Shown: positions 2,236-14,259 of the stretch, piece by piece | How the letters are laid out: each line of letters starts with the position of its first letter | How positions within the stretch are numbered: position 1 is the stretch's first letter | Assembly: GCF_002160515.1 (NCBI RefSeq) | Contig: NZ_NFKS01000003.1 | Span: 1-64,000 of the forward strand | Reading direction: 5' to 3' | DNA length: 64,000 nt | DNA from: Anaeromassilibacillus sp. An172 | GTDB lineage: Bacteria; Bacillota; Clostridia; Oscillospirales; Acutalibacteraceae | Notes under the pieces: generated by a model | The model's database searches: none | What the model was told of the DNA's origin: nothing | Seen by the model: only the letters and a program-made list of their open reading frames with translations | Translations under genes and position numbers: made by a program

Positions 2236-2255
2236 AATTTTGTACTTTAAACCAT

Positions 2256-2301
2256 AGAGAAAGTAAGATTTTTGAAAAAATTTCTTATTTTCTCTTTTTT
2301 G
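2256..2301 (+). terminator. AT-rich intrinsic terminator after spmAB
   Basis: The inverted repeat AGAGAAAGTAAGA / TCTTATTTTCTCT (2256-2268 and 2283-2295, one mismatch) is followed at once by a T-run. It separates spmAB from the phage-like block. Confidence 0.7.
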
Positions 2302-2356
2302 TTGCACTCAATTATGCAATTTTTGACCTTTTTTTCCTGTTAACGGGAGGTGTAAT

Positions 2357-2383
2357 TTGAAACACGAGGTGAAAAGTCATTGA
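2357..2383 (+). CDS. Possible 8-codon upstream ORF coupled to the terminase gene
   Basis: GGGAGG at 2345-2350 is followed six bases later by a TTG that opens an eight-codon frame (MKHEVKSH). Its TGA overlaps the TTG start of the small terminase gene (TTGA). The second ribosome binding site, GAGGTGA, lies inside it. This could couple translation of the phage-like operon. It may equally be chance, because the duplicated SD is the only support. Confidence 0.25.
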   Translation: MKHEVKSH

Positions 2384-2892
2384 AAAGTAAATTGACAAGG
2401 CAGGAAAGACAATTCTGCTGTAACTACGTAAGCAGCGGAAATTCCACTCAGGCGGCTGTTTTGGCGGGCTGTAAGGAAGATCCGGAAACTTGGGGAGAAA
2501 ATCTTTTATGCAGGGAGGATATTGCGGACGAGATTGCAAGACTTCTTGTTATAAGAAAAAAGACGGTTTCCTCTATGGCGGTTACCGGATATAAAAAACT
2601 GGCTTTCGGAGGCATAGGGGATGCCGTGAGTTTATTATACATGGAAAACCCCGATGTTGAAAAGCTGAAAAATATGGATTTGTACTGCGTATCTGAAATA
2701 CGCAGACCTAAAGAGGGCGCTATGGAAATAAAGTTTTTTGACAGGCTTAAAGCTTTGGAAAAATTGGAGGCAGGTTCATTGGAGGATAACGGGGCGGTTT
2801 CTTTCTTTGAAGCCTTAAACAGAGGAGCGTCTGCCGTGAACAATTCAGGTTCAAGACAGGAGAGAACGGAAATTGAGTATGGCGGAGATTAA
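2380..2892 (+). CDS. Phage terminase small subunit
   Basis: About 170 residues. The N-terminus has the small-terminase helix-turn-helix pattern (LTRQERQFCCNYVSSGNSTQAA, then an Asp/Glu-Ile-Ala-Asp-Glu-Ile helix) known from PBSX-like phages. It recognises phage or packaged DNA and recruits the large subunit. The TTG start follows GAGGTGA. It overlaps the large-subunit gene by 20 bases. It is the first gene of the structural block; its presence means DNA packaging could still be directed. Confidence 0.85.
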   Translation: MKSKLTRQERQFCCNYVSSGNSTQAAVLAGCKEDPETWGENLLCREDIADEIARLLVIRKKTVSSMAVTGYKKLAFGGIGDAVSLLYMENPDVEKLKNMDLYCVSEIRRPKEGAMEIKFFDRLKALEKLEAGSLEDNGAVSFFEALNRGASAVNNSGSRQERTEIEYGGD

Positions 2893-4129
2893 GCCTTTTT
2901 CAAAAAAACAGCTTATGGCCCTTACATGGTGGTGTCCCAGCTCGCCGTGGAGAAATTATGACGCCGTTATATGCGACGGGGCGGTGAGAAGCGGAAAGAC
3001 CTTTTGTATGGTTCTGTCTTTCATTGCCTGGAGTTTTTTGGAGTTTAACGACAGCTCCTTTGCCATGTGCGGCAAGACTATAAAATCCCTCAGGAGAAAT
3101 GTGGTGACGCCGGTTCTGCCCCTTTTGAAAAGTCTGGGTTTTGAAACCGGCGAGAAGCTTTCCGAAAATATCCTTACCATTACCTATAAAGGAAGAAAAA
3201 ACAGGTACTATCTTTTCGGAGGAAGGGATGAATCTTCGGCTTCCCTCATTCAGGGAATGACCCTTGCGGGGGTGTTTTTTGACGAGGTTGCCCTTATGCC
3301 ACGGTCCTTTGTGGAACAGGCTTTGGCGAGATGTTCTGTAGGCGGGTCGAAATTCTGGTTTAACTGCAACCCCGAATACCCTCAGCACTGGTTCTATGTT
3401 GAATGGATTAAAAAGCTGAAAAAGAAAAACGCTCTTTATCTCCATTTTGTTATGGAGGATAATCCTTCACTTTCCCAAAAGACCATTGCAAGATATAAAC
3501 GGCTTTATTCGGGCGCATTTTACGAGCGGTTTATTCTTGGAAAATGGGTGGCTGTTTTCGGGGCTGTGTATCCCTTTATGGACGATGAAAGCAAATATTG
3601 CGAACCTCCCGATGAACCTATGGAGGAATATGCGGTTTCCTGCGATTACGGCACGGTTAATCCCGCTTCCTTTGGACTTTGGGGTCTTAAAAGGGGAGTA
3701 TGGTACAGGATTGAGGAATATTACTATCAATCAAGACAAACGGGTGTACAGAAAACTGACGAAGAACACTACGAAGCACTTAAAAGCCTTGTGGGAAGCA
3801 GAAAAATCAGCGTTGTGGTGGTTGACCCTTCTGCCGCCAGCTTTATTCAGGTAATTCAAAGACACGGGGAGTTTTCCGTTGTTCCGGCGAAAAACAATGT
3901 TACCGACGGTATACGAAAAACATCCACGGCTTTAAAGGAGGGAAAAATAAAAATTTGCAGCACTTGCAAGGACAGCATGAGGGAGTTTTCTCTGTACCGT
4001 TGGGAGAGCAGCGGAAAGTTCGATGTTCCGGTAAAGGAAAACGACCATGCCATGGACGACATAAGATATTTTGTCACCACTGTCCTTGAAAAAAGCACAG
4101 GCTTTGCCGCCTGCGCCGTTGCAAGATAA
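2873..4129 (+). CDS. Phage terminase large subunit (PBSX type)
   Basis: DNA-packaging motor ATPase and nuclease, 418 residues, normal length. Walker A is GAVRSGKT at residues 36-43, and Walker B is VFFDEVAL near residue 135. The C-terminal nuclease domain shows the acidic residues expected (CDYGTVNP, VVVDPSAA and the late HAMDDIRYF). The TTG start is eight bases after AGGAGAG; an ATG two codons later is an alternative. The motor and nuclease motifs are complete, so the gene looks functional and not decayed. Confidence 0.92.
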   Translation: MSMAEIKPFSKKQLMALTWWCPSSPWRNYDAVICDGAVRSGKTFCMVLSFIAWSFLEFNDSSFAMCGKTIKSLRRNVVTPVLPLLKSLGFETGEKLSENILTITYKGRKNRYYLFGGRDESSASLIQGMTLAGVFFDEVALMPRSFVEQALARCSVGGSKFWFNCNPEYPQHWFYVEWIKKLKKKNALYLHFVMEDNPSLSQKTIARYKRLYSGAFYERFILGKWVAVFGAVYPFMDDESKYCEPPDEPMEEYAVSCDYGTVNPASFGLWGLKRGVWYRIEEYYYQSRQTGVQKTDEEHYEALKSLVGSRKISVVVVDPSAASFIQVIQRHGEFSVVPAKNNVTDGIRKTSTALKEGKIKICSTCKDSMREFSLYRWESSGKFDVPVKENDHAMDDIRYFVTTVLEKSTGFAACAVAR

Positions 4130-4139
4130 GGAGGAAAAT

Positions 4140-5306
4140 TTGAAAGGTTTTTGGAAAAGCAAAAAGGATACCTCCCGAAACAGTGAAAGGGGCTGTGTAG
4201 TTCAAACCGCCGTGGGCGAGTACAAACGTCATCCTTTTTCTCTGCTTGACAGCTATTCGCCCCTTAGAAAAAGCGAGATGGAGCTTTATTCCACTTTACG
4301 AGAGGCTATTCCCATTGTGGATGCGGCTATAGGCAAGACCGTGAGATTGCTGGGCTCCTTTAAATTGGAGTGCGAAGAAAAGCGTATGCAGAAAGAGCTT
4401 GAGGATTTTTGCGCTAATGTAAAGGTAAACGGAACTTCAAGGGGACTTGAAACCTTTATTGCCCAGTATTTCGACCAGCTTTTAACCTACGGTACTGCGG
4501 TGGGGGAAATGGTTCTTGATAATGACGGAAATCTTGAGTATCTCTATAATGCGTCACTTAAGGATGTTGAAATACGAAAAGGTCAGTCCCCTTTAGAGGT
4601 GGTTATCTGTGTTGACAACAACTGCACATGGGAGCCTATTAAGCATCCCGAGCTTGTCTGTATGACTCCACTTAATCCCGAGCCGGGAGAGGTTGTGGGA
4701 AACTCTGTTTTAAAGGGTCTGCCCTTTGTAAGCTCCATATTGCTTAAAATCTTTACCGCAATAGGAACTAACTGGGAGAGAATCGGAAACGTGAGATTTG
4801 CCGTGACCTACAACCCTAAAAATGAGGGCTTTAATGCTTCCGCTCAGGCAAAACAGATTGCCGACGAATGGAGCAGAGCCATGAGAAACAAAGGCGAGGT
4901 CTGCGACTTTGTGGCGGTGGGAGATATTTCGGTTAAGGTAATCGGCGCCGACAATCAGGTGCTGGACTGCGATGTGCCTATAAAGCATATTTTGGAGCAG
5001 ATTGTGGCAAAAATGGGAATTCCGCCTTTTATTCTCGGTCTTTCGTGGTCAAGTACCGAGAGAATGAGCCAGCAGCAGGCGGATATTCTCACCAGCGAGC
5101 TTGAATATTACAGGAAAATTTTAGAGCCGGTTATTTTGAAAATCGCTCAGATGTGGTTAAGGCTTAAAGGCAGTTTATCAAAGGTTTCCGTTGTCTGGGA
5201 TAATATCAGTCTTCTTGATGAGGTTGAGCTTGCCAATGCAAGGCTTATAAACGCTCAAGCTATGCAGATTGAGGAAGCTCTCGGAAAAGGCGGTGAAAGT
5301 GAGTAA
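4140..5306 (+). CDS. Phage portal protein
   Basis: About 388 residues. The portal forms the dodecameric ring at the capsid vertex through which DNA passes. The pattern of two alpha/beta blocks and the segment IPPFILGLSWSSTERMS before a long helix (QQADILTSELEYYRKILEP) are typical. The frame extends upstream into the terminase gene, but AAGGAGGAAAAT just before a TTG at 4140 fixes the start 10 bases after the terminase stop. It lies between the terminase and protease genes, as in most tailed phages. Confidence 0.85.
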   Translation: MKGFWKSKKDTSRNSERGCVVQTAVGEYKRHPFSLLDSYSPLRKSEMELYSTLREAIPIVDAAIGKTVRLLGSFKLECEEKRMQKELEDFCANVKVNGTSRGLETFIAQYFDQLLTYGTAVGEMVLDNDGNLEYLYNASLKDVEIRKGQSPLEVVICVDNNCTWEPIKHPELVCMTPLNPEPGEVVGNSVLKGLPFVSSILLKIFTAIGTNWERIGNVRFAVTYNPKNEGFNASAQAKQIADEWSRAMRNKGEVCDFVAVGDISVKVIGADNQVLDCDVPIKHILEQIVAKMGIPPFILGLSWSSTERMSQQQADILTSELEYYRKILEPVILKIAQMWLRLKGSLSKVSVVWDNISLLDEVELANARLINAQAMQIEEALGKGGESE

Positions 5307-5330
5307 TTGAAAAAGGGTGATTTGGAAGGT

Positions 5331-6341
5331 ATGAATTTGGAGAACAGCAAAGGTCTTTTAAAAAGTATCCGTGGCGATATAGGCAATTCTCAGGCGGCTG
5401 ATGTTCCAACAGATGAGGAGCTTGAGCTTATAAACGGATACACAAGAAAAAGATTTTCTAAGGAAGAGGTATATGTATTTACGGTTGTCCTTTGCGACAA
5501 CGATGTGGACAGGGATTTTCAGAGATTCCCTGTGGAAACGCTGACCGCCCTTGAAAAAATGTTTGTGGGAAAAAGCGGTATTTTTGACCACAATCCCAGT
5601 ACAAACAACCAGACTGCACGAATTATTTCATGCAGTACAAAGAGTGTTGACGGTGTTGTGACTGCCACAGGCGACCAGTATTTTCGCCTTGAGGCGAGGG
5701 CTTATATTCCCAGAGGAAGGCAGTTTGACGATGTTATTTATGCAATAGAAAGCGGAATAAAAAAGGAAGTCAGTGTTGGATGCAGCGTAGCTTTTGAAAA
5801 ATGCTCCATATGCGGTGAAAATATGGGAAGCTGCGGACATAAAAGGGGAAATGTATACGGCGGCAAACTCTGTTACGGTGAGCTTATCGACCCCATAGAC
5901 GCTTATGAATGGAGTTTCGTTGCGGTTCCCGCCCAGAGAGAAGCAGGCGTTATCAAAAGCTATCCGGGCGGTATGGAAAGGAGTATTTCAATGGAGGAAA
6001 TATTGAAAAGCATAGGCGCAGGGGAAAGCCTCAGTCTTGACCCCATGCAGACCGAAAAGCTTTGTGGATATATAGAAAAGCTTAAAAAGGCGGCGGCTGA
6101 CGGAGCGGTTTACAGAAACGAGCTTAAAGCCGCAGTTAAAAAGTATTCGGCGATTATTCAGCCGGATATCAGCGAAAATACGATGGAAAAAATCATAAAT
6201 TCTCTCACCGTTAAAGAGCTTTCCGAGCTGAAGGCTTCCTATGAGAAAAAGGCGGCAGGGGTTATAGGAAAATGCAGACCTCAGCTTGCTTCAGTCAAAA
6301 GCGGAAAAGAGAAGAACAGCAATAAAGAATTTAAAATCTGA
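5331..6341 (+). CDS. Prohead protease with C-terminal scaffold-like region
   Basis: Residues up to about 220 resemble HK97-type prohead proteases: a DNDVDRDFQRFP segment, a candidate catalytic His in GIFDHNP, and a Ser in EVSVGCS. The last 120 residues are helical and charged (scaffold-like), ending in a Lys-rich tail. It would assemble with, then cleave, the capsid precursor. An unusual insert, CSICGENMGSCGH, could bind zinc. The start is uncertain: ATG 5331 follows AAGGGTGA by ten bases, while TTG 5307 is also preceded by a purine-rich site. Confidence 0.7.
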   Translation: MNLENSKGLLKSIRGDIGNSQAADVPTDEELELINGYTRKRFSKEEVYVFTVVLCDNDVDRDFQRFPVETLTALEKMFVGKSGIFDHNPSTNNQTARIISCSTKSVDGVVTATGDQYFRLEARAYIPRGRQFDDVIYAIESGIKKEVSVGCSVAFEKCSICGENMGSCGHKRGNVYGGKLCYGELIDPIDAYEWSFVAVPAQREAGVIKSYPGGMERSISMEEILKSIGAGESLSLDPMQTEKLCGYIEKLKKAAADGAVYRNELKAAVKKYSAIIQPDISENTMEKIINSLTVKELSELKASYEKKAAGVIGKCRPQLASVKSGKEKNSNKEFKI

Positions 6342-6356
6342 TTTGGAGGTATATAG

Positions 6357-6692
6357 ATGGAGAATGTTAGTTTTAACGGATACAACGAGAATGTTATAAC
6401 ATTGCCTGCGGCAGACGGAGTGGTAAAGGGAAGTATTGTAAAAGTTTCTGAAAATTACAAGGTTTCCAACTGCGCTGACGGCAATCAGTTTTTGGGCGTT
6501 GTTGTGAATATAAGAGGCGGCTATGCTGCGGTTCAGACAAAGGGCTACTTTAAGCTTAAAAAGGCAGGTTCAATCGGCCTTGGATTTCAGGAGCTTGCCG
6601 CTTCTTCCTCAACTGTTATTAAAGCACTTGGGGGCGGAGTTCAATGTCAGGTAATTGCCGTTGACAGCACATACGTTGAGTTTATTATATGA
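6357..6692 (+). CDS. Probable capsid decoration protein
   Basis: 111 residues, mostly beta strand, with the pattern of small head-decoration proteins: an early Gly-Ser-Ile-Val-Lys-Val strand (VVKGSIVKVSENYKV), then FLGVVVNIRGGYAAVQTKGY. It sits between the protease and major capsid genes, where decoration proteins are usually coded. It has a good GGAGG ribosome binding site. The function rests on position and fold pattern; no catalytic motif is expected. Confidence 0.6.
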   Translation: MENVSFNGYNENVITLPAADGVVKGSIVKVSENYKVSNCADGNQFLGVVVNIRGGYAAVQTKGYFKLKKAGSIGLGFQELAASSSTVIKALGGGVQCQVIAVDSTYVEFII

Positions 6693-6715
6693 TTTAAAAG
6701 GAGAGATTTATAATA

Positions 6716-7729
6716 ATGGAAATGTACGAAAAGATTAAACCGGAAAAGGGTATGTATTCCTACAGAAATAAGAGTTTTTCCGATATTTTGGAGTCTTTGG
6801 ACCCTTCCGAAAATTATATAGGAACAGAGCTTGAGGGTCTTGACGCTTTTTCAAGACAGCTCAAGAGATTTGACATCAAGGTAAGCGGAAAGTCTTCCGA
6901 CAGAATAGAAAAGTTTTTCCAGACCTCCGACAGCGCCGCTTTGTTCCCTGAATACATAAGCAGAGCGGTTCATACAGGTATGGAAAGCGTGAACATCATA
7001 AATCAGATGGTTGCGGTTGTCACAAATATCGACGGACTTGACTACAGAAGCATCGCTTCCATTCCTTATGAGGATGAGAAAAAGCTGAAGAGAGTAAACG
7101 AGGGCGCATTTATTCCTCAGACAACCGTAAAGACACAGGATCACCTGGTTCCTCTTTACAAAAGAGGAAGAATGTTGGTTTCTTCCTATGAGGCTATCAG
7201 ATATCAGCGCCTTGACCTTTTCTCTGTCACTTTAAGACAGATTGGTGCGGCTATTGCTCTTTCTCAGGCTGAGGACGCCATAAACACTATCATTAACGGC
7301 GACGGCAATTCAAATCCCTGCCCAAGCAACGATTCTGCTGATTCTGAAAACATCACTTATGACGACCTCATAAACCTTTGGACAAATCTTTCACCTTACG
7401 AGCTTAACACCATGATTGCTTCAACAGAGGCAATTAAGATGGTATTTAAAATTGACGAGATGAAGGACGCTTCCGCAGGTCTTACATTCCACGGAACAGG
7501 CAAGATGATGACTCCTTTCGGTGCAACACTTATCCATGTTCCAACCTTTGAAGGCAACAAGCTTATCGGTATGGACAAGAACTGCGCTTTGGAAATGGTT
7601 GTTTCCGGCGGTGTGCAGACTGAGTACGACAAGCTTATCGACAGACAGCTTGAAAGAGCCGCTATCACTTGCACAGCAGGCTTTGCAAAAATCTTTACCG
7701 ACGCTGCAAGAGTTATCAGCATAGCCTGA
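6716..7729 (+). CDS. Major capsid protein, HK97-like fold
   Basis: 337 residues, acidic and repeat-free. A long N-terminal region (possible scaffold delta domain) is followed by E-loop-like and P-domain-like segments (AIALSQAEDAINTIINGDGNS; later TPFGATLIHVPTF and DRQLERAAITCTAGFAKIFTDAARVISI). The position directly after the decoration gene and before the connectors is typical. The ATG at 6716 follows GGAGAGATTTATAATA. Codon use is biased to preferred codons compared with neighbouring phage genes, consistent with the most abundant structural protein. Confidence 0.8.
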   Translation: MEMYEKIKPEKGMYSYRNKSFSDILESLDPSENYIGTELEGLDAFSRQLKRFDIKVSGKSSDRIEKFFQTSDSAALFPEYISRAVHTGMESVNIINQMVAVVTNIDGLDYRSIASIPYEDEKKLKRVNEGAFIPQTTVKTQDHLVPLYKRGRMLVSSYEAIRYQRLDLFSVTLRQIGAAIALSQAEDAINTIINGDGNSNPCPSNDSADSENITYDDLINLWTNLSPYELNTMIASTEAIKMVFKIDEMKDASAGLTFHGTGKMMTPFGATLIHVPTFEGNKLIGMDKNCALEMVVSGGVQTEYDKLIDRQLERAAITCTAGFAKIFTDAARVISIA

Positions 7730-7742
7730 CGGGGGGCTTTTT

Positions 7743-8111
7743 ATGAGCTTGAAAAATGTCACGGACAGATTTTTAATGCTTTCAGGCTTAGGGGAAAGTG
7801 ATTTGAAGAGATGGACGCCTCTTTGCCGTGATTCCTTGGAATACATTGAAAGCAGACTGAAAAATAAAGATAATTCAAATGAAAATGTCTGTAGAATAAG
7901 CTCTGCCGCCGCCGCTTTGGCTTATTATTCTTACTGCCTTACCACAGGTACTTCCGGCAATCCTAAAAGATTTAAAGCCGGGGATATCGAAATAGAACAG
8001 GATTATACCCAGCTTACAGAGTCTGCAAAATCTTTGTGGCTTTGTGAAAAGGAGAAAATTTCCGACCTTTTGAAAGAGGAGGGCTTTTACTTCGGGAGGA
8101 TAATCACATGA
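7743..8111 (+). CDS. Probable head-tail connector (adaptor) protein
   Basis: 122 residues, mostly helical, with the helix-rich pattern of adaptor proteins that sit under the portal (for example SPP1 gp15-like). The start ATG follows a GGGGGG purine block, and the stop overlaps the next gene by four bases. The assignment is by size, helix content and position between capsid and stopper genes. Confidence 0.55.
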   Translation: MSLKNVTDRFLMLSGLGESDLKRWTPLCRDSLEYIESRLKNKDNSNENVCRISSAAAALAYYSYCLTTGTSGNPKRFKAGDIEIEQDYTQLTESAKSLWLCEKEKISDLLKEEGFYFGRIIT

Positions 8112-8467
8112 GCTTGGCAGAAAGAATACGCCGCTCTATTTCCCTTTACGGTGATAACGTTGTTGTCACCGTAAAGGGTGAAGCCAAAAGCGGCAAGGCT
8201 TTTATTGAACCCTTGAGATACAAAAACAGAATGTACATAGGCGGCAAAAGAATAGAGCCGGGATTTTACGACGGAGGTTACTATCTTTATATAGGTCAGT
8301 ACGATATTCCTCTTGACGATATTCAGAACACAGTGATTTCAAGGGGAGAGGAAAAGTTTTATATAAAGCGTTCCGAGATGTACAAGTCCGGAAATGAAAA
8401 TCTTTATGTGTGGGCAATAGTTGTTGTAAACACCGAAAAGGAGGATGCTGAGTATGACCAGTATTGA
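8108..8467 (+). CDS. Probable head-closure (stopper) protein
   Basis: 119 residues. The strand-rich segments GKAFIEPLRYKNRMYIGGKRIEPGFYDGGYYLYIGQYDIPL resemble PBSX XkdH-like and SPP1 gp16-like minor structural proteins. These close the capsid and provide the tail attachment site. Its start overlaps the preceding stop (ATGA), and its end overlaps the next gene, so translation is coupled. Confidence 0.55.
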   Translation: MSLAERIRRSISLYGDNVVVTVKGEAKSGKAFIEPLRYKNRMYIGGKRIEPGFYDGGYYLYIGQYDIPLDDIQNTVISRGEEKFYIKRSEMYKSGNENLYVWAIVVVNTEKEDAEYDQY

Positions 8468-9254
8468 CCAGTGGATTGACAACGCTGTACAGGCTTTGAA
8501 GAACAGCGGGAAATTCAATGACATGGTTTTTCTCAAGGAATATCAGACAAGACCTTTTGAAGTTCCTATAAAAAATTTCCTTGTTGTGGTAACGCTGGAC
8601 AGCATGAAGAAAAACGGTGTAAACAGCCTGAATTACGGATATGGTAACAGAAAAGACAGCTCGTCGGCTGGATTTATTGTGTATGCTCCCTGTTCTGTAA
8701 GCGGTTATACGCTGACACAAAGAGCGCTGGAGCTTTTTAATGAAATTTCTGCATTAGGCGACGATGATGAGGACATTCCGCAGATATATTTAGAGCCTAT
8801 AAAATTTGATGAAAAAGCCGACACCCTGTGCAGGGAAATAACGGTTACATTTATTAAATATTCGGAAAATTCATCTTCCGGAGGCGGCGAGGGAGACGAC
8901 TATTTTGAACTGTTGATAAACGATACAAAGATAGAAAATCTTGTTGATGTGGAGTACACCGATAAAAGGGATTATTTTAATGCTGAGAGTTATCTTACAG
9001 ATATTCCATCAAGGAAAGTTCCTTTAAACGGAAGCCATACAATAAATGTGAGAAAGAGGGCGTCTTATGCAGACAGCCTTTTTTATGAACCGGAGTTTTC
9101 CGCAAAGCTTTTGCTGGACGGCAGTACAAAGTGTTTTGAAAAATGTATTGTGACGGTTATTAAGACACATTTGGTTGACGGTTATTTGGTGACTGATATT
9201 GAATTTACCGGTGATATTGCCGAAAGCGGGGACGGTGAAGATGATGGACAATGA
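8454..9254 (+). CDS. Possible fusion of tail-completion and tail-tube-like domains
   Basis: 266 residues in two parts joined by a Ser/Gly-rich linker (SSSGGGEGDD). The first 145 residues resemble tail terminator or completion proteins, including a conserved 'YAPCSVSGYTLTQRALELF' helix region. The last 110 residues alternate strands in the pattern of tail-tube proteins (LLINDTKIENLVDVEYT, PLNGSHTINVRKRASY, FEKCIVTVIKTHL...DIEFTGD). No separate tube gene is present, so this may supply both functions. The start ATG 8454 lies nine bases after AAGGAGG; the ATG at 8445 abuts the SD and is unlikely. The tube assignment is inference. Confidence 0.45.
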   Translation: MTSIDQWIDNAVQALKNSGKFNDMVFLKEYQTRPFEVPIKNFLVVVTLDSMKKNGVNSLNYGYGNRKDSSSAGFIVYAPCSVSGYTLTQRALELFNEISALGDDDEDIPQIYLEPIKFDEKADTLCREITVTFIKYSENSSSGGGEGDDYFELLINDTKIENLVDVEYTDKRDYFNAESYLTDIPSRKVPLNGSHTINVRKRASYADSLFYEPEFSAKLLLDGSTKCFEKCIVTVIKTHLVDGYLVTDIEFTGDIAESGDGEDDGQ

Positions 9255-9375
9255 AAATATTTTTGATTTATCTCAGGGAGAAAAAAGTGTTCAGGAAATC
9301 AGCTTTTTTATGGAAAGAGAAAGTCTGAGATACACAAGAGAATTTACCGAAGAGGAAGAGGTGAAGCTTTTATGA
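9244..9375 (+). CDS. Small protein at the usual tail-chaperone / tape-measure position
   Basis: A 43-codon frame (44 if ATG 9241 is used), rich in Glu and ending REFTEEEEVKLL. It starts after GGTGAAG inside the end of the preceding gene. Its TGA overlaps the ATG of the next gene (ATGA), so it is embedded in a chain of coupled genes and probably translated. In PBSX-like phages this slot holds the tail assembly chaperones and the long tape-measure gene. Here only this short frame exists. The function is unknown. Confidence 0.6.
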   Translation: MDNENIFDLSQGEKSVQEISFFMERESLRYTREFTEEEEVKLL

Positions 9376-9920
9376 CTTTAACATCAATGAGTTTTGACGG
9401 GTATACATGGGAATTTAATTCTAAATATCTTACTTTCAGTCATAATACAAATACAAATATTTCCTATTATCCTTACGGAGGCTCAACTCTTCAGAATTTC
9501 GGAAAACAAAACTGTGTAATAACAGGAAGCGGCTGCTTTGTGGGGGAAAACTGTACTGATATGTACAATAAACTCCGTGATAAATTTAACAGTGGTAAAA
9601 TCGGAGTTTTGACACTTCCGGGTTTTCCGCCCATAAATGCTTTTTTCAGCAGGCTTGTTTTAAAGGGCGAGCCTAAGCCTGATGTTCTGGATTATGAGTT
9701 TGAATTTATTGAGGTTCAGGACGAATACTTGGAAATTGCATCTCTGGATGAGTCGGGTAAATCCGGTGGAAAAAATATACGCAAGGTTATTCCAAACGGG
9801 GAAACTCTTTGGGATTTGTCATACAAATACGGTATAAATGTGGACAATCTTGTATCTTTGAATCCTCAGATAAGGCGTCCTGATATTCCAATAGAGGAAG
9901 GTCAGGTGAGGCTCAGTTGA
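9372..9920 (+). CDS. LysM-domain baseplate/hub protein
   Basis: 182 residues. The last 50 residues form a LysM-like unit (IRKVIPNGETLWDLSYKYGINVDNLVSLNPQIRRPDIPIEEGQVRL). The N-terminal 125 residues are beta-rich. LysM proteins at this position (XkdP of PBSX, gp53-like proteins of contractile systems) link the hub to the baseplate wedges and may touch peptidoglycan. The ribosome binding site GAGGTGA precedes the ATG. It overlaps its upstream neighbour and its downstream neighbour by four bases. Confidence 0.7.
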   Translation: MTLTSMSFDGYTWEFNSKYLTFSHNTNTNISYYPYGGSTLQNFGKQNCVITGSGCFVGENCTDMYNKLRDKFNSGKIGVLTLPGFPPINAFFSRLVLKGEPKPDVLDYEFEFIEVQDEYLEIASLDESGKSGGKNIRKVIPNGETLWDLSYKYGINVDNLVSLNPQIRRPDIPIEEGQVRLS

Positions 9921-10864
9921 AAATAGTGCTTACGGATATAAACGGACAGGAAAAGACTATCAGAAAATTTAAAAAGCTTGTCCTAAAAGAGGAAGAGGGA
10001 GTACCCGCTCATACACTGCTTGTGAGATTTCATTCAGAGGGAGAACCTTTATCAGAAATAGCTTTTATGAGATTTGAAGATGAAGGGAAAATTGTTTTCG
10101 ACGGAATAGTTGACACCATTACAGAATTTTATTCTGAGGGGAATTACTATTTTGAGGTGTTCGGAAGAAATAGAGTGTCGTTGCTTTTGGACAATGAGGT
10201 AATGCCTGCGGTTTACAGCAATCCAACCTCGGAACAGATAAAAGAAATATTTTTAAAGCCCTATGGTTTCAGCGATTATGTGGGCGGTACATCTTCTTAC
10301 AACGGGATTTTTAATGTGGCTAAGGGCAAGTCACCTTGGGACATTATCGAAAGCTTTTGCAAAACCTGTTATGAAACCGTTCCCTATTGCAGTCCTGACA
10401 ATGTTATCTATTTTACCGGATTGCCGACAGGAGAGAAAATAACATTCGGAAAAGGTTTTGATATAGATTTTTCTGAGTACAGGTTTGACATACAAAGACA
10501 CAAGATTATATCTTCGGTAAAAATTAAGAGAAGCGAAGCGGAGGATTATTCAACTGAAATTTTTTCTCAGGAGGCTGATAAAAGGCTTATACAAAGACAG
10601 AGGTATTTAAACGCATCAAACACACAGTTTACACCTGTTTTCTGCGCAGAAAAAATGCTTTTAAACGGAATTAACAACAGCAGAAATATATCTTTAAAGT
10701 GTTCCGGTTTGCTTTCCGATTGTCTTGGTGCTGAGGCTTCCGTCAGTGTTTTTGGAAGGGTTATCGATAATTTGAAAATTTACGGATTACAGATAAATGT
10801 CAGTGAAAACCAGATAAATACCGTGGTGGAATTAAGGGGGAACAGCAGTTATGTGGATACTTGA
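9917..10864 (+). CDS. Phage late control gpD / XkdQ-like tail hub protein
   Basis: 315 residues, close to XkdQ and T4 gp27-like hubs. It has two barrel regions (IVFDGIVDTITEFYSEGNYYFEVFGRNRVSLLLDNEVMPAVYSNPTSEQIKEIFLKP is split across them), a central helix region (GKSPWDIIESFCKTCYETVPYCSPDNVIYF), and a third strand-rich part. The hub forms the central trimer of the baseplate. It starts with TTG after AGGTGAG. The spike gene follows with a 14-base overlap. Confidence 0.75.
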   Translation: MKIVLTDINGQEKTIRKFKKLVLKEEEGVPAHTLLVRFHSEGEPLSEIAFMRFEDEGKIVFDGIVDTITEFYSEGNYYFEVFGRNRVSLLLDNEVMPAVYSNPTSEQIKEIFLKPYGFSDYVGGTSSYNGIFNVAKGKSPWDIIESFCKTCYETVPYCSPDNVIYFTGLPTGEKITFGKGFDIDFSEYRFDIQRHKIISSVKIKRSEAEDYSTEIFSQEADKRLIQRQRYLNASNTQFTPVFCAEKMLLNGINNSRNISLKCSGLLSDCLGAEASVSVFGRVIDNLKIYGLQINVSENQINTVVELRGNSSYVDT

Positions 10865-11180
10865 CAGAATTGTAAAGAACAAAAGCTCAACAGAGGCAAA
10901 AAGCGGAGAAATAACAAATGCTGACGGTAAAAACATCAGCGCCGCAGGAACCGAAGAGTATTCAAGTCTGCCTATGATTTCACCCTATGGGATTGTAAGC
11001 TTCCCTCCCAAAGGTGAAAAGACTGTTGTATTATCCTATGACTTCGGAAAGGTCTGCCTTGGTGTTTTGTCCTATCCCCAGGATTTAGAGGAAGGGGAAA
11101 TCCTTTTGTGCTCTCGTGGCGGCGCTCAGATAAAGCTTTGCAACAACGGCAAGGTGCTTATTAACGGCAAGGAGGTTTGA
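10851..11180 (+). CDS. Short gp45/gpV-like baseplate spike protein
   Basis: 109 residues. An OB-like segment (MISPYGIVSFPPKGEKTVVLSY, then VCLGVLSYPQDLEEGEILLCSRGGAQIKLCNNGKVLING) matches the Mu gp45 / P2 gpV family, where Gly-Gly-Ala-Xaa-Ile turns begin the beta-helix spike. The protein is shorter than most family members (often 180-220 residues), and the first 40 residues are disordered-looking. It would form the piercing tip under the hub. Confidence 0.65.
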   Translation: MWILDRIVKNKSSTEAKSGEITNADGKNISAAGTEEYSSLPMISPYGIVSFPPKGEKTVVLSYDFGKVCLGVLSYPQDLEEGEILLCSRGGAQIKLCNNGKVLINGKEV

Positions 11181-11181
11181 T

Positions 11182-11529
11182 ATGGATATAAAAATTCTTG
11201 ACGGCGACAATGTATTGAGAGGCGACAGGTTTGAAAGCGTCTGTGGATTTGACGAAACCTCTCAGCAGGCTTTAATTGCCATAACAGGGAAAAAAGGATG
11301 TTTTATTTATGACAGGGAGCTTGGAAGTATTTTACAGGAATATATAAAAAGCGGTGAGAAAGTGACTTTAAAACAGGCGGACAGTATTGTAAGGTCTGCG
11401 GTTTCACGTCTTGAAAATGTTTCGGCAAAGGTAAAGAGTTTGGAAGAAAAAGATGGAAAATATGAAATAACGGTGATAATAACGGAAAATGACAGCGGCA
11501 CACAGGAGGAAAGGGTGATTGTTATATGA
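11182..11529 (+). CDS. gp25/gp46-like baseplate wedge protein
   Basis: 115 residues with the lysozyme-like wedge fold pattern of Mu gp46 / DUF2634-type proteins (a short N-terminal strand, Asp-Arg-Glu-Leu-Gly-Ser, long helix KQADSIVRSAVSRLENV, two terminal strands). In contractile systems this protein connects the baseplate wedges to the sheath. A sheath gene is absent here, which makes its retention notable. It overlaps the baseplate J gene by four bases. Confidence 0.65.
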   Translation: MDIKILDGDNVLRGDRFESVCGFDETSQQALIAITGKKGCFIYDRELGSILQEYIKSGEKVTLKQADSIVRSAVSRLENVSAKVKSLEEKDGKYEITVIITENDSGTQEERVIVI

Positions 11530-12590
11530 GTGAAGAATACAGCAAAGTGCTGGAGAGGATGAGAAATGAGTATTACCGACAGACAGGAATGTTTCCAGAT
11601 GAAAATTCTGATATTCAGATAAAAATGAAAATTCTTGCCGGTGAGCTTCACGCTTTGGGCGTAAATATTGACTGGCTGAAAAGACAGCTTAACCCTGAAA
11701 CTGCGGACGGGGAATATCTTAATTATCACGGTTCAAAGCTTGGCCTTACACGAAAACCGCCTGCAAAAGCATCGGGTACAGTTAGGTTCTATACCGGGGG
11801 AGAGCTTTTCTCGGATTATGTAATCAAAGCCGGAACCCTCGTTTCTACATCGGGAAAAAATCCGGTGAGATTTGAAACAACTGAAGCAGTTATTTTAAGT
11901 GCGGGAGCAGATTATGCTGACGCAAAAGTGAGAGCAGTAGAGGGAGGAAGCTCAGGAAACGTGAATACAGGGGAAGTCAGCGTTATGGTTTCACTTTTAC
12001 AGCCTGTTTCAAAGGTTACAAACCTTTCTAAGTTTACAGGGGGAACAGATGAAGAAAGCGACGAGGATTTCAGAAGCAGGATTGTAGCCGCTCAAAGCTT
12101 TCCGGCAACGGGTACAAACGCCGCATATTATGAAAAGCTTGCTTTGTCTGTAACCGGAGTGGGAGCCGCTTATGTATCTCCCAAAAGACGTGGAAAGGGC
12201 ACAGTTGATATTTTTATACTTCCCAATGGTGCAGTTGAAGAAAGTCAGGTTTTGGAAAATCTTGAGGCTCTTGTGCTTCAGGAAAGAGAGCTGGGCGTTG
12301 ATGTTGATGTGTTAAAGGCTACATCTGTACAGGGAAGCGTTACAGTTACGATTTATCCCGATGAGGGTTATACTTTCGATACTGTAAAAACAAACTGCTC
12401 TGAGGCTGTACAGAGAAAGGTAAGCAACCTGACAATCGGAGAGGATTTAAAGCTTTCGGATATAGGCGACGCTTTGTACCATGCTCAGGGAGTTTATGAC
12501 TATAAATTTGACAGTTCCTCATCCAATATCACTGCCGGAGAAAACAGAATAATTACGGGAGTTACCCTTACCATGAAAGAAGGTGTATAA
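11526..12590 (+). CDS. Baseplate J-like protein (Mu gp47 / XkdT family)
   Basis: 354 residues, normal for the family. The core includes AVEGGSSGNVNTGEV and the GGTDEESDEDFRSRIV signature that marks baseplate J proteins. It forms the wedge ring of contractile tails. It follows the gp46-like gene with a four-base overlap and immediately precedes the gp48-like gene (stop at 12588-12590, next start 12591). Intact, with no sign of decay. Confidence 0.85.
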   Translation: MSEEYSKVLERMRNEYYRQTGMFPDENSDIQIKMKILAGELHALGVNIDWLKRQLNPETADGEYLNYHGSKLGLTRKPPAKASGTVRFYTGGELFSDYVIKAGTLVSTSGKNPVRFETTEAVILSAGADYADAKVRAVEGGSSGNVNTGEVSVMVSLLQPVSKVTNLSKFTGGTDEESDEDFRSRIVAAQSFPATGTNAAYYEKLALSVTGVGAAYVSPKRRGKGTVDIFILPNGAVEESQVLENLEALVLQERELGVDVDVLKATSVQGSVTVTIYPDEGYTFDTVKTNCSEAVQRKVSNLTIGEDLKLSDIGDALYHAQGVYDYKFDSSSSNITAGENRIITGVTLTMKEGV

Positions 12591-13160
12591 GTGGCGTATT
12601 TACCCTTTGAATATCTAAAGGAGAAACTGCTTTCCACCGGACTTTATGAGGATAAGGAGGATTCGGCGGCTCTTTTGGAGCTTAGGTGTTATGCCGCAGG
12701 TTTTCAGGCTTTGGGCGATGAGATTGAAAATGTTTTGCAGGAGAGCTTTGCTCAGACGGCGGAGTCTGCTGGTCTTGATTATATTGAAAATAAGTATGAT
12801 TTGGGATTTATTTCGGACAATCAGGATGAAAGAAAAAGGGGAATAATTGCGGCTTCAAAAATTGCAGCCGGTTCCTTTACCCAGAGAAGCATAGAAACGT
12901 TTTTAAGCGAAACGGTTGGTGAGTTTGAAATGGACGCTTCTTATGCAAATTCTACAGTCGGCATAACAATAAAGAACAGGGGATTGTCCTCCTATTTTAT
13001 CGAATGGATAAAGAGAATACTTCCTAAGATTATTACGGCTGAGCTGGAGCTTTCCATAACAATAGACGGTCTGTCTTGGACAAAGATAGATGAAAAAAAT
13101 CTCACTTGGCTTGAAATGGACAACAAAAACTATACCTGGGCAGATATTGAAATAATGTAA
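12591..13160 (+). CDS. Mu gp48 / YmfQ-like tail protein
   Basis: 189 residues. The early segment ELRCYAAGFQALGDEIENVLQESFAQTAESAGLDYIENKYDL matches the DUF2313 family (Mu gp48, YmfQ), which links the baseplate to tail fibres. Its C-terminus ends in a repeated Thr-Trp pattern (LTWLEMDNKNYTWADIEIM). It starts with GTG directly after the stop of the J protein, preceded by GAAGGTG. Confidence 0.75.
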   Translation: MAYLPFEYLKEKLLSTGLYEDKEDSAALLELRCYAAGFQALGDEIENVLQESFAQTAESAGLDYIENKYDLGFISDNQDERKRGIIAASKIAAGSFTQRSIETFLSETVGEFEMDASYANSTVGITIKNRGLSSYFIEWIKRILPKIITAELELSITIDGLSWTKIDEKNLTWLEMDNKNYTWADIEIM

Positions 13161-13179
13161 AGATGAAAGGATGATATAC

Positions 13180-13650
13180 TTGGGTTCAACCAATAAAACG
13201 GAGTATCTCGGACTTAGCGGCTGGGTACACTCTGATACTCCTAAGATGATAGATTTTGCCACAGATAACGAAATAGTGGACAGCGTCTTGGGAGAACATA
13301 TAAACGACAGCAAAATACATTTGTCGGAAGAGGACAGGGCGCTTTTGGGCGGAAGTATCACTTCAATCCTTATGGCGGGAAACGGAAGCACTTCAAGAAC
13401 CGTTACCCTTTCAAGTGCCCCTAAAATGGTTCAGATATTTTTGAAAAATGCTCCTCCTGCTTCCTGGAACTCAGAGAAAAGCTGTATGGTGGTAAACAGC
13501 GCTTTCGTGCTTCAAAAAGGAATGTCAACAGGAGGCGCTTCCCTTACCGATAAAAGTCTTGTGCTTACAAACAGCTCGGCTCCGTCAAACGGGATTATGT
13601 ACAATCTCAACGAGGAGTACGGCCAGTATGTTATAATATGCTATAGTTAA
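13180..13650 (+). CDS. Putative tail fibre protein
   Basis: 156 residues. The N-terminal third (MIDFATDNEIVDSVLGEHINDSKIHLSEEDRALL in outline) resembles phage tail-fibre leaders. The last 90 residues look like a small beta-sandwich, possibly the receptor-binding head. The frame opens at ATG 13171, but AAAGG abuts that ATG; the TTG at 13180 is better spaced. It is the last gene of the block and is followed by a strong terminator. No fibre chaperone, holin or amidase follows. Confidence 0.5.
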   Translation: MGSTNKTEYLGLSGWVHSDTPKMIDFATDNEIVDSVLGEHINDSKIHLSEEDRALLGGSITSILMAGNGSTSRTVTLSSAPKMVQIFLKNAPPASWNSEKSCMVVNSAFVLQKGMSTGGASLTDKSLVLTNSSAPSNGIMYNLNEEYGQYVIICYS

Positions 13651-13697
13651 AATACAGACACGGTTTTTAATGTGGCTTAATTTCGGTTTCCGTTTTT

Positions 13698-13745
13698 AGT
13701 CCCGCTTTTTCTTTAAAAGGAATTGGCGGGACTGTTTTGTTATTT
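13698..13745 (+). terminator. Terminator closing the phage-like block
   Basis: Perfect stem AGTCCCGC/GCGGGACT (13698-13705 and 13726-13733) followed by GTTTTGTTATTT. It isolates the phage-like genes from the polyamine operon. Confidence 0.8.
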
Positions 13746-13902: not shown

Positions 13903-14259
13903 GACATGGGACTTAGCAGATTTTAGCGTCTTCCATGCAAATATTCTTTGACCACCATTTATTGGTTAAGGCCATGCGGACAGCCGGGTCAACTGCCGAG
14001 CGGCAACTTTGGTTGCCTTATTGATTGAGTTAAAAACTTAAAATTTTATAAGTTGGTTACTTTATAACCTGTGCGTTTATCGCATACTAACTTGTGAAAC
14101 GGTCAATAAGAGTAGTAAAAGTGAGAAGTTTGCTATATAGACTCTGAATCTGTTTTTTCCGAAAATATAGACTTGTTCTTTTAGGGATAGTGTCCTTAGA
14201 AATATAAGCGGGGAAGCAGTGCGCAAGTAATGTGATAACACACATTGCCTGCGTTTTTT
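13903..14259 (+). ncRNA. Structured leader RNA (or small RNA) ahead of speD, class not recognised
   Basis: A 357-base stretch with no credible reading frame, a consensus promoter and an intrinsic terminator. Visible helices: CATGG/CCATG extended by GAC/GTC (13905-13937); TTGACCA/TGGTTAA (13948-13969); GGCAAC/GTTGCC (14002-14017); and CTTATTGA/TCAATAAG (14017-14024 with 14103-14110). The last helix encloses three small hairpins (AACTTA/TAAGTT, GGTTA/TAACC, TGCG/CGCA), which makes a four-way junction. It shows no RNase P, tmRNA, SRP, T-box or SAM-I signature that I can see. The terminator position fits either an attenuating riboswitch for the polyamine operon or a free-standing small RNA. Confidence 0.6.
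14222..14259 (+). terminator. Terminator in the speD leader
   Basis: An imperfect stem, CGCAxGTAATGTG with CACATTGCxTGCG, followed by TTTTTT. It lies between the promoter and speD, so read-through must occur (or a second promoter must exist) for the operon to be expressed. Confidence 0.7.

What the first reader, a model, noticed from the sequence alone, without database searches (positions are those of the whole stretch)
2380..13650. Phage capsid and baseplate block without sheath, tape measure, integrase, replication or lysis genes
Every frame from terminase to tail fibre is intact and densely packed with coupled starts, yet the genes that set tail length, contract, integrate, replicate or lyse are missing. 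The ends are marked by host-style terminators, and flanks are sporulation and polyamine genes. Decaying prophages usually show broken frames; here selection seems to keep a reduced particle. Possibilities are a gene-transfer-agent-like particle, a domesticated capsid, or a short-tailed device.
Basis: partly seen in the sequence, partly recalled or inferred. Interest (0 to 1): 0.75.

Follow-up and report, generated by a model that had tools for sequence, protein, structure and literature searches.

The report
Ancient gut-bacterial DNA-packaging capsid, tail shrunken
This 11-kb gene block is a phage particle that many members of an order of gut bacteria seem to have inherited from parent to offspring and kept in working order while cutting its tail down step by step, so it is most likely a virus-like device for packaging and passing on the bacterium's own DNA.

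Summary
Window 2380-13650 is one run of 17 intact genes: terminase, portal, capsid protease, capsid, neck, tail terminator fused to tail tube, baseplate, fibre. No sheath, tape-measure, integrase, replication or lysis gene was found in it, and no sheath in the whole genome. It is not a decaying prophage. The portal occurs in 175 of 300 same-family genomes, one match each, with relatives in other families of the order. The element tree shares 14 of 27 splits with the host RpoB tree (permuted mean 0.25). In the closest pair dN/dS is below 0.25 in all 15 genes. Terminase catalytic residues are invariant in 17 elements. Some relatives keep a sheath and small genes at the tape-measure place; the window lineage lost them, and others lost the baseplate too. 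Best reading: a vertically inherited gene-transfer-agent-like particle. It resembles FpGTA of Faecalibacterium (PMC12946183), whose sequence I could not compare. New points: order-wide inheritance, repeated tail reduction, a terminator-tube fusion suggesting a one-ring tail, and a conserved dyad before the operon. DNA packaging and transfer are inferred, not shown.

The parts
2254..2300 (+). terminator-like hairpin and T-run after spmB
   Evidence: RNA fold -16.6 kcal/mol, z -3.9
2302..2319 (+). conserved dyad TTGCA-N8-TGCAA, operator or attenuator
   Evidence: only copy in the 64-kb window; same spacing upstream of terS in 50 of 139 distinct elements
2380..2892 (+). terminase small subunit
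   Evidence: Terminase_2 PF03592, 56 bits
2873..4129 (+). terminase large subunit, ATPase and nuclease residues intact
   Evidence: Terminase_6N PF03237, 58 bits; Walker and nuclease residues invariant in 17 (motif names recalled)
4071..5306 (+). portal protein
   Evidence: phrog_30703 E 2.5e-124
5307..6341 (+). capsid maturation protease with C-terminal helical part, perhaps scaffold
   Evidence: model pLDDT 84; T4 gp21 protease 5jbl_B Z 10.0; H95 and S156 invariant in 38
6357..6692 (+). capsid decoration-like protein
   Evidence: phrog_4588 virion structural protein E 6.5e-16
6716..7729 (+). major capsid protein
   Evidence: phrog_3922 E 5.9e-90; Phage_capsid_4 PF25209 48 bits
7743..8111 (+). 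head-tail connector 1 (by position)
   Evidence: conserved cluster; no significant family match
8108..8467 (+). head-tail connector 2 (by position)
   Evidence: conserved cluster; no significant family match
8445..9254 (+). tail terminator (about residues 1-147) fused to tail tube (about 149-264)
   Evidence: model pLDDT 74; terminators Z about 11, tubes Z about 10
9199..9375 (+). small conserved protein before the LysM gene
   Evidence: 66% identical in G001; true start probably further downstream
9372..9920 (+). tube-baseplate junction protein with LysM
   Evidence: LysM PF01476 33 bits; weak DNA_circ_N match below cut-off
9917..10864 (+). baseplate hub
   Evidence: phrog_177 baseplate hub E 1e-8
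10851..11180 (+). spike-like protein (Mu gp45-like, weak)
   Evidence: phrog_25991 unknown function E 5e-7; Mu Gp45 E 0.012, below cut-off
11182..11529 (+). baseplate wedge protein, gp25/W-like
   Evidence: phrog_2669 E 4e-9
11526..12590 (+). baseplate J protein
   Evidence: PF04865 167 bits
12591..13160 (+). baseplate protein, Mu gp48-like
   Evidence: phrog_521 tail protein E 6e-13; Mu Gp48 E 5e-4, below cut-off
13171..13650 (+). tail fibre-like protein
   Evidence: phrog_33092 E 1.6e-4, unknown function; conserved cluster; name by position
13690..13745 (+). terminator-like hairpin after the operon
   Evidence: RNA fold -21.2 kcal/mol, z -4.7

Best explanation
The block is a domesticated, vertically inherited phage particle of the gene-transfer-agent kind, probably older than the split of several families of one order of gut Clostridia. 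Likely working: the operon is expressed under host control; portal, capsid and protease build a small head; the terminase cuts and packs chromosomal DNA; two connectors close the neck; the terminator-tube fusion forms one short ring; and the LysM protein, hub, spike, wedge and fibre form a miniature non-contractile baseplate that binds another cell and lets DNA out. Shown by computation: gene content, agreement with the host tree, purifying selection in the close pair, intact motor residues, absence of a sheath. Inferred: particle formation, packaging of host DNA, delivery, and release by lysis functions encoded elsewhere.
For: Portal, one match per genome, in 175 of 300 family genomes, 80 of 135 genera; MCP in 58 of 345 order genomes and 67 of 148 genomes of family f26. 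Agreement with the RpoB tree: 14 of 27 splits shared against a permuted mean of 0.25 and maximum of 3; Mantel rho 0.72 for 30 genomes and 0.79 for the 24 of the family, 0 of 4999 permutations each. dN/dS in pair L257/L258 (dS 0.17-0.44) 0.005-0.246 in all 15 genes compared. TerL Walker and nuclease residues invariant in 17 elements, head-only ones (L033, L230) included. Intact frames. GC3 like the host. Fifteen of 186 distinct elements kept the head and lost the baseplate, though elements were collected by head genes. An experimental precedent exists in what I infer to be the same order: FpGTA and GTA-like packaging in Ruminococcaceae and Oscillospiraceae (PMC12946183).
Against: No particle or packaged DNA was seen for this element. 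No lysis gene was found in the block, and lysis genes were not searched genome-wide. 125 of 300 family genomes lack the portal match, so it is dispensable (some of those genomes are incomplete). Position in the chromosome changes. The virome contigs that carry the element may be contamination: two contigs of the same record series carry rpoB. One strong conflict with the RpoB tree remains (G544), and only 6 of the 30 genomes in that tree lie outside the family, so the between-family part rests on few. Some pairs show higher dN/dS, up to 0.87 in a neck gene (L255/L256) and 0.25-0.59 throughout in L223/L224. Loci were collected by portal or MCP, so baseplates without heads would have been missed.
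Confidence: 0.75

Rival explanations
1. A decaying or recently deleted prophage that happens to look intact.
For: Phage-derived genes; IMG/VR holds at least 327 stretches with this capsid, many on contigs of 10-14 kb filed as viral; a tailed-phage-like region with a distant capsid relative exists outside the order (G743, locus L233).
Against: One match per genome through a family, host-tree agreement, low dN/dS in the close pair, intact frames, no exact word of 10 bases or more shared by the borders, same site in the nearest relative.
Confidence: 0.05
2. An antibacterial device (tailocin or PBSX-like killer) whose target is a rival cell, the DNA being irrelevant.
For: Baseplate genes are kept in most elements (112 baseplate without sheath and 32 with sheath, of 186). 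PBSX of Bacillus acts as a tailocin without injecting DNA (stated in PMC12946183).
Against: No sheath in the window genome. In the close pair capsid, protease, portal and TerL have the lowest ratios but one (mcp 0.005, prot 0.047, portal 0.055, LysM 0.077, terL 0.083, against J 0.091, hub 0.156, fibre 0.187, gp48 0.226); the neck gene hc2 is the highest at 0.246. Fifteen distinct elements keep the head and have lost the baseplate; of 13 genomes whose element lacks J in the stretch held, 11 have no J match anywhere and two only weak ones (G004, G311).
Confidence: 0.12
3. A domesticated capsid with an inside-the-cell or export role (DNA storage, nanocompartment), not gene transfer.
For: Elements without recognised fibre or baseplate exist (e.g. 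L045, where a host-type gene follows the neck genes).
Against: 144 of 186 distinct elements keep baseplate genes (20 others are cut by contig ends), and some elements without baseplate keep a fibre-like part in the terminator-place gene (L034, L036, L041, L048).
Confidence: 0.08

Closest known systems
FpGTA of Faecalibacterium (Borodovich et al. 2026, PMC12946183; abstract, sections 9, 10, 26 and search passages read)
   Same: Same bacterial order as far as I can infer; TerS, TerL, portal, a scaffold-like gene and capsid named in that order; no replication genes; short or no tail; [quoted passage not shown]
   Different: FpGTA has ten genes in operon I and, in several strains, a second 5.5-kb operon with baseplate, fibre and lysis genes. 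Here head and baseplate form one operon and no lysis genes were seen. Sequence homology could not be tested.
RcGTA of Rhodobacter and related alphaproteobacterial GTAs
   Same: Vertically inherited head-tail cluster with terminase (recalled). Tail terminator and tube domains of the model match RcGTA chains (6tba_4A Z 10.4; 6toa_G Z 9.7), but many phages match equally well.
   Different: RcGTA has a siphovirus-like tail with tape measure (recalled); here Mu-like baseplate genes and no tape measure in the block.
PBSX of Bacillus subtilis
   Same: Myovirus-derived cluster with head and baseplate genes, kept in the chromosome (recalled).
   Different: PBSX has sheath, tape measure and lysis genes (recalled); the window element has none in its block.
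Phage Mu-type tail module
   Same: Gene order terminator, (sheath), tube, (chaperone, tape measure), LysM/gp43 place, hub, gp45, W, J, gp48 (order and names recalled; matches).
   Different: Sheath and the chaperone and tape-measure places are gone in the window lineage, and terminator is fused to tube.

Membership tests
Gene transfer agents (general) | phage-like cluster with terminase, portal, capsid | tested here: met
Gene transfer agents (general) | no integrase or replication genes in the cluster | tested here: met
   none among the 17 window genes nor among the conserved clusters of 111 loci
Gene transfer agents (general) | inherited vertically with the host and under purifying selection | tested here: met
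   one strong tree conflict (G544)
Gene transfer agents (general) | packages pieces of host DNA smaller than needed to carry its own cluster | not testable with these tools
   needs particles; virome contigs are inconclusive because
Gene transfer agents (general) | delivers DNA to recipient cells | not testable with these tools
   no experiment
FpGTA | portal, one scaffold-like gene, capsid adjacent | tested here: inconclusive
   window has two genes between portal and capsid; f26 elements such as L229 have one; the FpGTA spacing is my inference from its accession numbers
FpGTA | sequence homology to RCH50849.1 and RCH50851.1 | not testable with these tools
   sequences not held; the genome carrying the Faecalibacterium probe (G902) had no capsid or TerL match, but its genus is not established
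FpGTA | separate operon with baseplate and lysis genes (not detected in seven of twelve strains by its authors) | tested here: not met
   in the window the baseplate is in the same operon and J has one match in the genome; no lysis gene in the block
PBSX / contractile tailocins | contractile sheath | tested here: not met
   no match in the window genome; the same searches rang in 3 of 14 control genomes and in 5 of 28 genomes
Temperate prophage | integrase, att repeats, mobility between lineages | tested here: not met
   no integrase in the block, no exact word of 10 bases or more shared by the borders, host-like tree

The most novel reading that the evidence does not exclude
An order-wide, ancient gene transfer agent of gut Clostridia whose tail has been dismantled in parallel in several lineages, from a mini contractile tail, through a baseplate on a single terminator-tube ring (the fusion itself being the tail-length ruler), to DNA-filled heads with at most a fibre on the neck. 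It would account for some of the orphan packaging of short random chromosome pieces reported in Ruminococcaceae and Oscillospiraceae, and it would be switched through a shared TTGCA-N8-TGCAA control site.
Probability: 0.5. Interest if true: 0.87.

Novelty: new variant of a known kind. Interest (0 to 1): 0.76.

Why it matters
Few gene transfer agents are known, and the authors of PMC12946183 call FpGTA the first found in the human gut microbiome. It also offers a natural series of losses, from contractile tail to near-bare head, that shows which phage parts such a particle can do without. Because IMG/VR files these pieces as viruses, it also matters for viral counts in the gut.

Tried and rejected
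Recent prophage: rejected. Hidden sheath elsewhere in the genome: none. Split element with the baseplate elsewhere: the J profile was run on 20 genomes. Thirteen of them have an element without J in the stretch held (G004, G005, G016, G019, G033, G161, G246, G311, G223, G335, G329, G604, G486); 11 had no J match and G004 and G311 weak ones (4.4e-28, 4.7e-19), probably other phages. Six more f26 genomes were included whose elements I did not examine; of these G991 and G1004 had weak matches. The twentieth, G000, has its one J.

Evidence from viromes for packaged host DNA: five fecal 'Bacteriophage sp.' records carry the element, and MT835508 is a 46.7-kb chromosome piece with ribosomal-protein genes (named by eye). 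The likely source study used filtered, chloroform- and DNase-treated particles (PMC8361208, passages read; the accession series is not named there, so the link is inference). But two other records of the series carry rpoB, so contamination explains it equally well. I do not count it.

FpGTA link: the Faecalibacterium 16S probe (recalled; its presence in print confirmed by a search listing) matched only G902 of 148. G902 shows no capsid or TerL match, but its 16S does not settle its genus, so the link stays open.

First RpoB trees were wrong and are discarded. In one search many rows were read on the wrong strand (rho -0.01, 2 shared splits). In one search five rows without the RpoB motif were antisense frames (rho 0.62, 7 shared splits). 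One search uses all 30 genomes with corrected frames; the motif is seen in all 30. The promoter-type patterns (consensus words recalled) matched in 1 of 141 loci at most and are not used. One search had wrong slices at locus edges and was redone. A first dyad search of the window used the wrong spacing; one search has the right one.

Operator or attenuator: the dyad folds as a hairpin before a T-run in two relatives but weakly in the window; undecided.
Full report
WHAT IS THERE. Window 2380-13650 holds 17 genes on one strand, overlapping or separated by 0-23 nt. Family searches give terminase small and large subunits, portal, a decoration-like protein, major capsid protein, a LysM/DNA_circ-like protein, hub, wedge, baseplate J and a gp48-like protein. 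Names of the two connectors, the spike and the fibre rest on position and weak matches. Terminator-like hairpins close both ends. GC3 of the block equals that of four flanking host genes (0.431 and 0.427), and the two borders share no exact word of 10 bases or more.

GENES WITHOUT A NAME. Gene 5307-6341 was modelled (pLDDT 84). Its best structural match stands clear of the others: T4 capsid protease gp21, Z 10.0, rmsd 3.4, 135 residues, with herpesvirus capsid proteases next at Z 6.6 and below. A histidine and a serine in that part (H95, S156) are invariant in 38 elements, as are C166, C169, C176 and H178. Gene 8445-9254 was modelled with pLDDT 74 and pTM 0.49. Residues 1-147 match tail terminators (lambda tail cap 8iyd_K Z 11.3, lambda gpU 3fz2_D Z 11.2), and 149-264 match tail tubes (Z about 10) of many phages, RcGTA among them. 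So terminator and tube are one chain here. If both domains assemble one to one, the tube cannot grow beyond one ring; this is inference, but it would explain the absence of a tape measure.

NOT A DECAYING PROPHAGE. The portal was found in 25 of 37 family members in a first sample (26 of 60 genomes in all) and in 175 of 300 in a second (150 of 230 good-quality genomes; 80 of 135 genera), one match in each genome with a match. The capsid was found in 58 of 345 genomes of the order, 28 of them of the window's family, and in 67 of 148 of family f26. In the class sample it was found in 6 of 291, one of them outside the order and distant. A phylum sample with the portal gave 5 of 398: three inside the order and two at the noise level. 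One order genome (G239) had two capsid matches, and three of f26 had two partial ones. A tree of TerL, portal, capsid and protease shares 14 of 27 splits with the RpoB tree of the same 30 genomes (24 of the family, 6 of three other families), against a mean of 0.25 and maximum of 3 in 999 relabellings. Distances correlate at rho 0.72 (0.79 within the family), with 0 of 4999 permutations as high. One strong conflict remains, G544. Two earlier versions of this comparison were faulty and are told under Tried and rejected.

SELECTION. Between the close pair L257/L258 (dS 0.17-0.44) dN/dS is 0.005 for capsid, 0.047 protease, 0.055 portal, 0.083 TerL, 0.091 J, and up to 0.246 (hc2) in the others; all 15 genes compared are below 0.25. 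Window against G001 gives 0.03-0.18 in 16 genes, but dS there is 0.9-2.7 and partly saturated. Other pairs are higher: 0.19-0.47 with one gene (hc1) at 0.873 in L255/L256, 0.25-0.59 in L223/L224, and 0.748 for hc2 in L220/L222; dS is not saturated in all of these (0.47 and 0.26 for the two extreme values), so some neck genes evolve under weak constraint in some lineages (all). Frames are intact (80% or more of median length) in 163 of 164 (TerL), 186 of 186 (portal), 184 of 186 (protease), 184 of 185 (capsid), 130 of 130 (J) and 140 of 140 (hub) distinct loci. TerL keeps its Walker A, Walker B and nuclease acidic residues in all 17 elements aligned, head-only L033 and L230 included (motif names recalled).

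HOW THE TAIL SHRANK. Of 186 distinct elements (203 loci with four genes, reduced at 98% identity), 112 have a baseplate and no sheath, 32 sheath and baseplate, 4 sheath with the rest cut off, 15 head only, 3 hub only, and 20 are cut by contig ends. The sheath is real: phrog_279 E 2e-36, PF04984 49 bits in L249. It lies between terminator and tube in families f14 and f26 and in a few members of the window's family. Sheath-bearing elements have a median of 1150 bp between tube and LysM gene (32 loci); in the three read in full (L220, L226, L249) this holds small genes at the chaperone and tape-measure places, which themselves have no significant family match. Sheath-less ones have a median of 121 bp (89 loci). 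L031 is an intermediate, with sheath but a gap of only 194 bp. In 22 of 112 sheath-less elements the tube domain lies in an ORF of 200 aa or more, as in the window; 20 of these also match the terminator profile. None with sheath does so. Tube proteins of sheath-bearing elements are 44-60% identical to that of L249; the separate tubes of sheath-less ones are 14-26%. On the RpoB tree the presence or absence of sheath needs 4 changes, or 6 losses if it was ancestral. On the element tree it needs 7, against at least 28 in 200 shuffles. An element-specific sheath profile found nothing in 23 of 28 genomes, the window's included, and hit five whose element holds it. Several elements without baseplate carry a fibre-like match in the gene at the terminator place (L036, L041, L048 with both profiles, L034 with the fibre profile only). 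The head was kept throughout, but loci were collected by portal or capsid, so the reverse loss could not be seen.

CONTROL SITE. A dyad TTGCA-N8-TGCAA lies upstream of terS in 50 of 139 distinct elements with that region held (25 others skipped for lack of upstream sequence and 22 without a terS match). Allowing spacings of 5-12 gives 51, against a shuffled mean of 0.28 and maximum of 2; there are 0 of 186 in capsid genes. It occurs once in the 64-kb window, at 2302. In 3.08 Mb of loci, 53 copies lie near terS and 10 elsewhere, two of those 10 also not far upstream of terS (L225, L117). It was seen in f1, in one f26 locus (L230) and one f14 locus (L225), and not in 14 other f14, f15 and f26 loci checked. 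Upstream of terS, 143 of 161 ungapped positions are identical between window and G001, while synonymous sites in the genes are near saturation. Whether it is an operator or an attenuator hairpin is open.

WHAT IT DOES. Most likely a gene-transfer-agent-like particle: the packaging motor and capsid are among the best-kept parts, the delivery end is reduced but mostly kept, and nothing seen in the block could spread as a phage. An antibacterial device is less likely, since the sheath was lost repeatedly and heads without baseplates persist. Packaging, release and transfer are inferred.

KNOWN WORK. Borodovich et al. 2026 (PMC12946183; abstract, sections 9, 10, 26 and search passages read) describe FpGTA in Faecalibacterium: about 40-nm heads with no visible tail, DNA of about 9 kb from particles and 8.4-8.9 kb in viromes, a 10.5-kb head operon and a 5.5-kb operon with baseplate, fibre and lysis genes. 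They also report similar packaging in other Ruminococcaceae, Oscillospiraceae and Christensenellaceae, for which the sections I read name no gene cluster. The present element is a natural candidate for some of those, but its relation to FpGTA was not testable. Other literature searches (listings only) showed no report on this element in the held library. Named relatives include uncultured Ruminococcus, Anaeromassilibacillus and Clostridia MAGs; the contig of G020 has the same length and match as CAMFTQ010000010.

Noticed in passing
window 13949-13999: Rfam RF02440 (SpF59/ldcC RNA, described from Streptococcus), 64.4 bits against a cut-off of 37.2, about 330 nt upstream of speD; probably belongs to the polyamine operon and not to the element.
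   Followed up: no
window 2302-2319; 50 of 139 related elements: Conserved dyad TTGCA-N8-TGCAA upstream of terS, seen in loci of three families; binding factor unknown.
   Followed up: partly
L229, L230, L236 (family f26): A diverged subtype without decoration gene and with only terminator- or hub-like genes after the head.
   Followed up: partly
L056 (MT835508.1), 1-46673: A record filed as a bacteriophage is a bacterial chromosome piece with ribosomal-protein, adenylate kinase and Rnf-like genes around a head-only element (genes named by eye).
   Followed up: partly
L233 (G743): A tailed-phage-like region outside the order with a distant capsid relative (E 1.5e-55), a hint at the phage stock the element came from.
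   Followed up: no
element flanks in L226, L059 and others: A spore-germination GerA-like gene (named by eye) lies near the element in 25 of 111 loci, and spmAB in 23 of the 122 distinct elements whose flank could be judged; whether the sporulation neighbours mean anything is open.
   Followed up: partly
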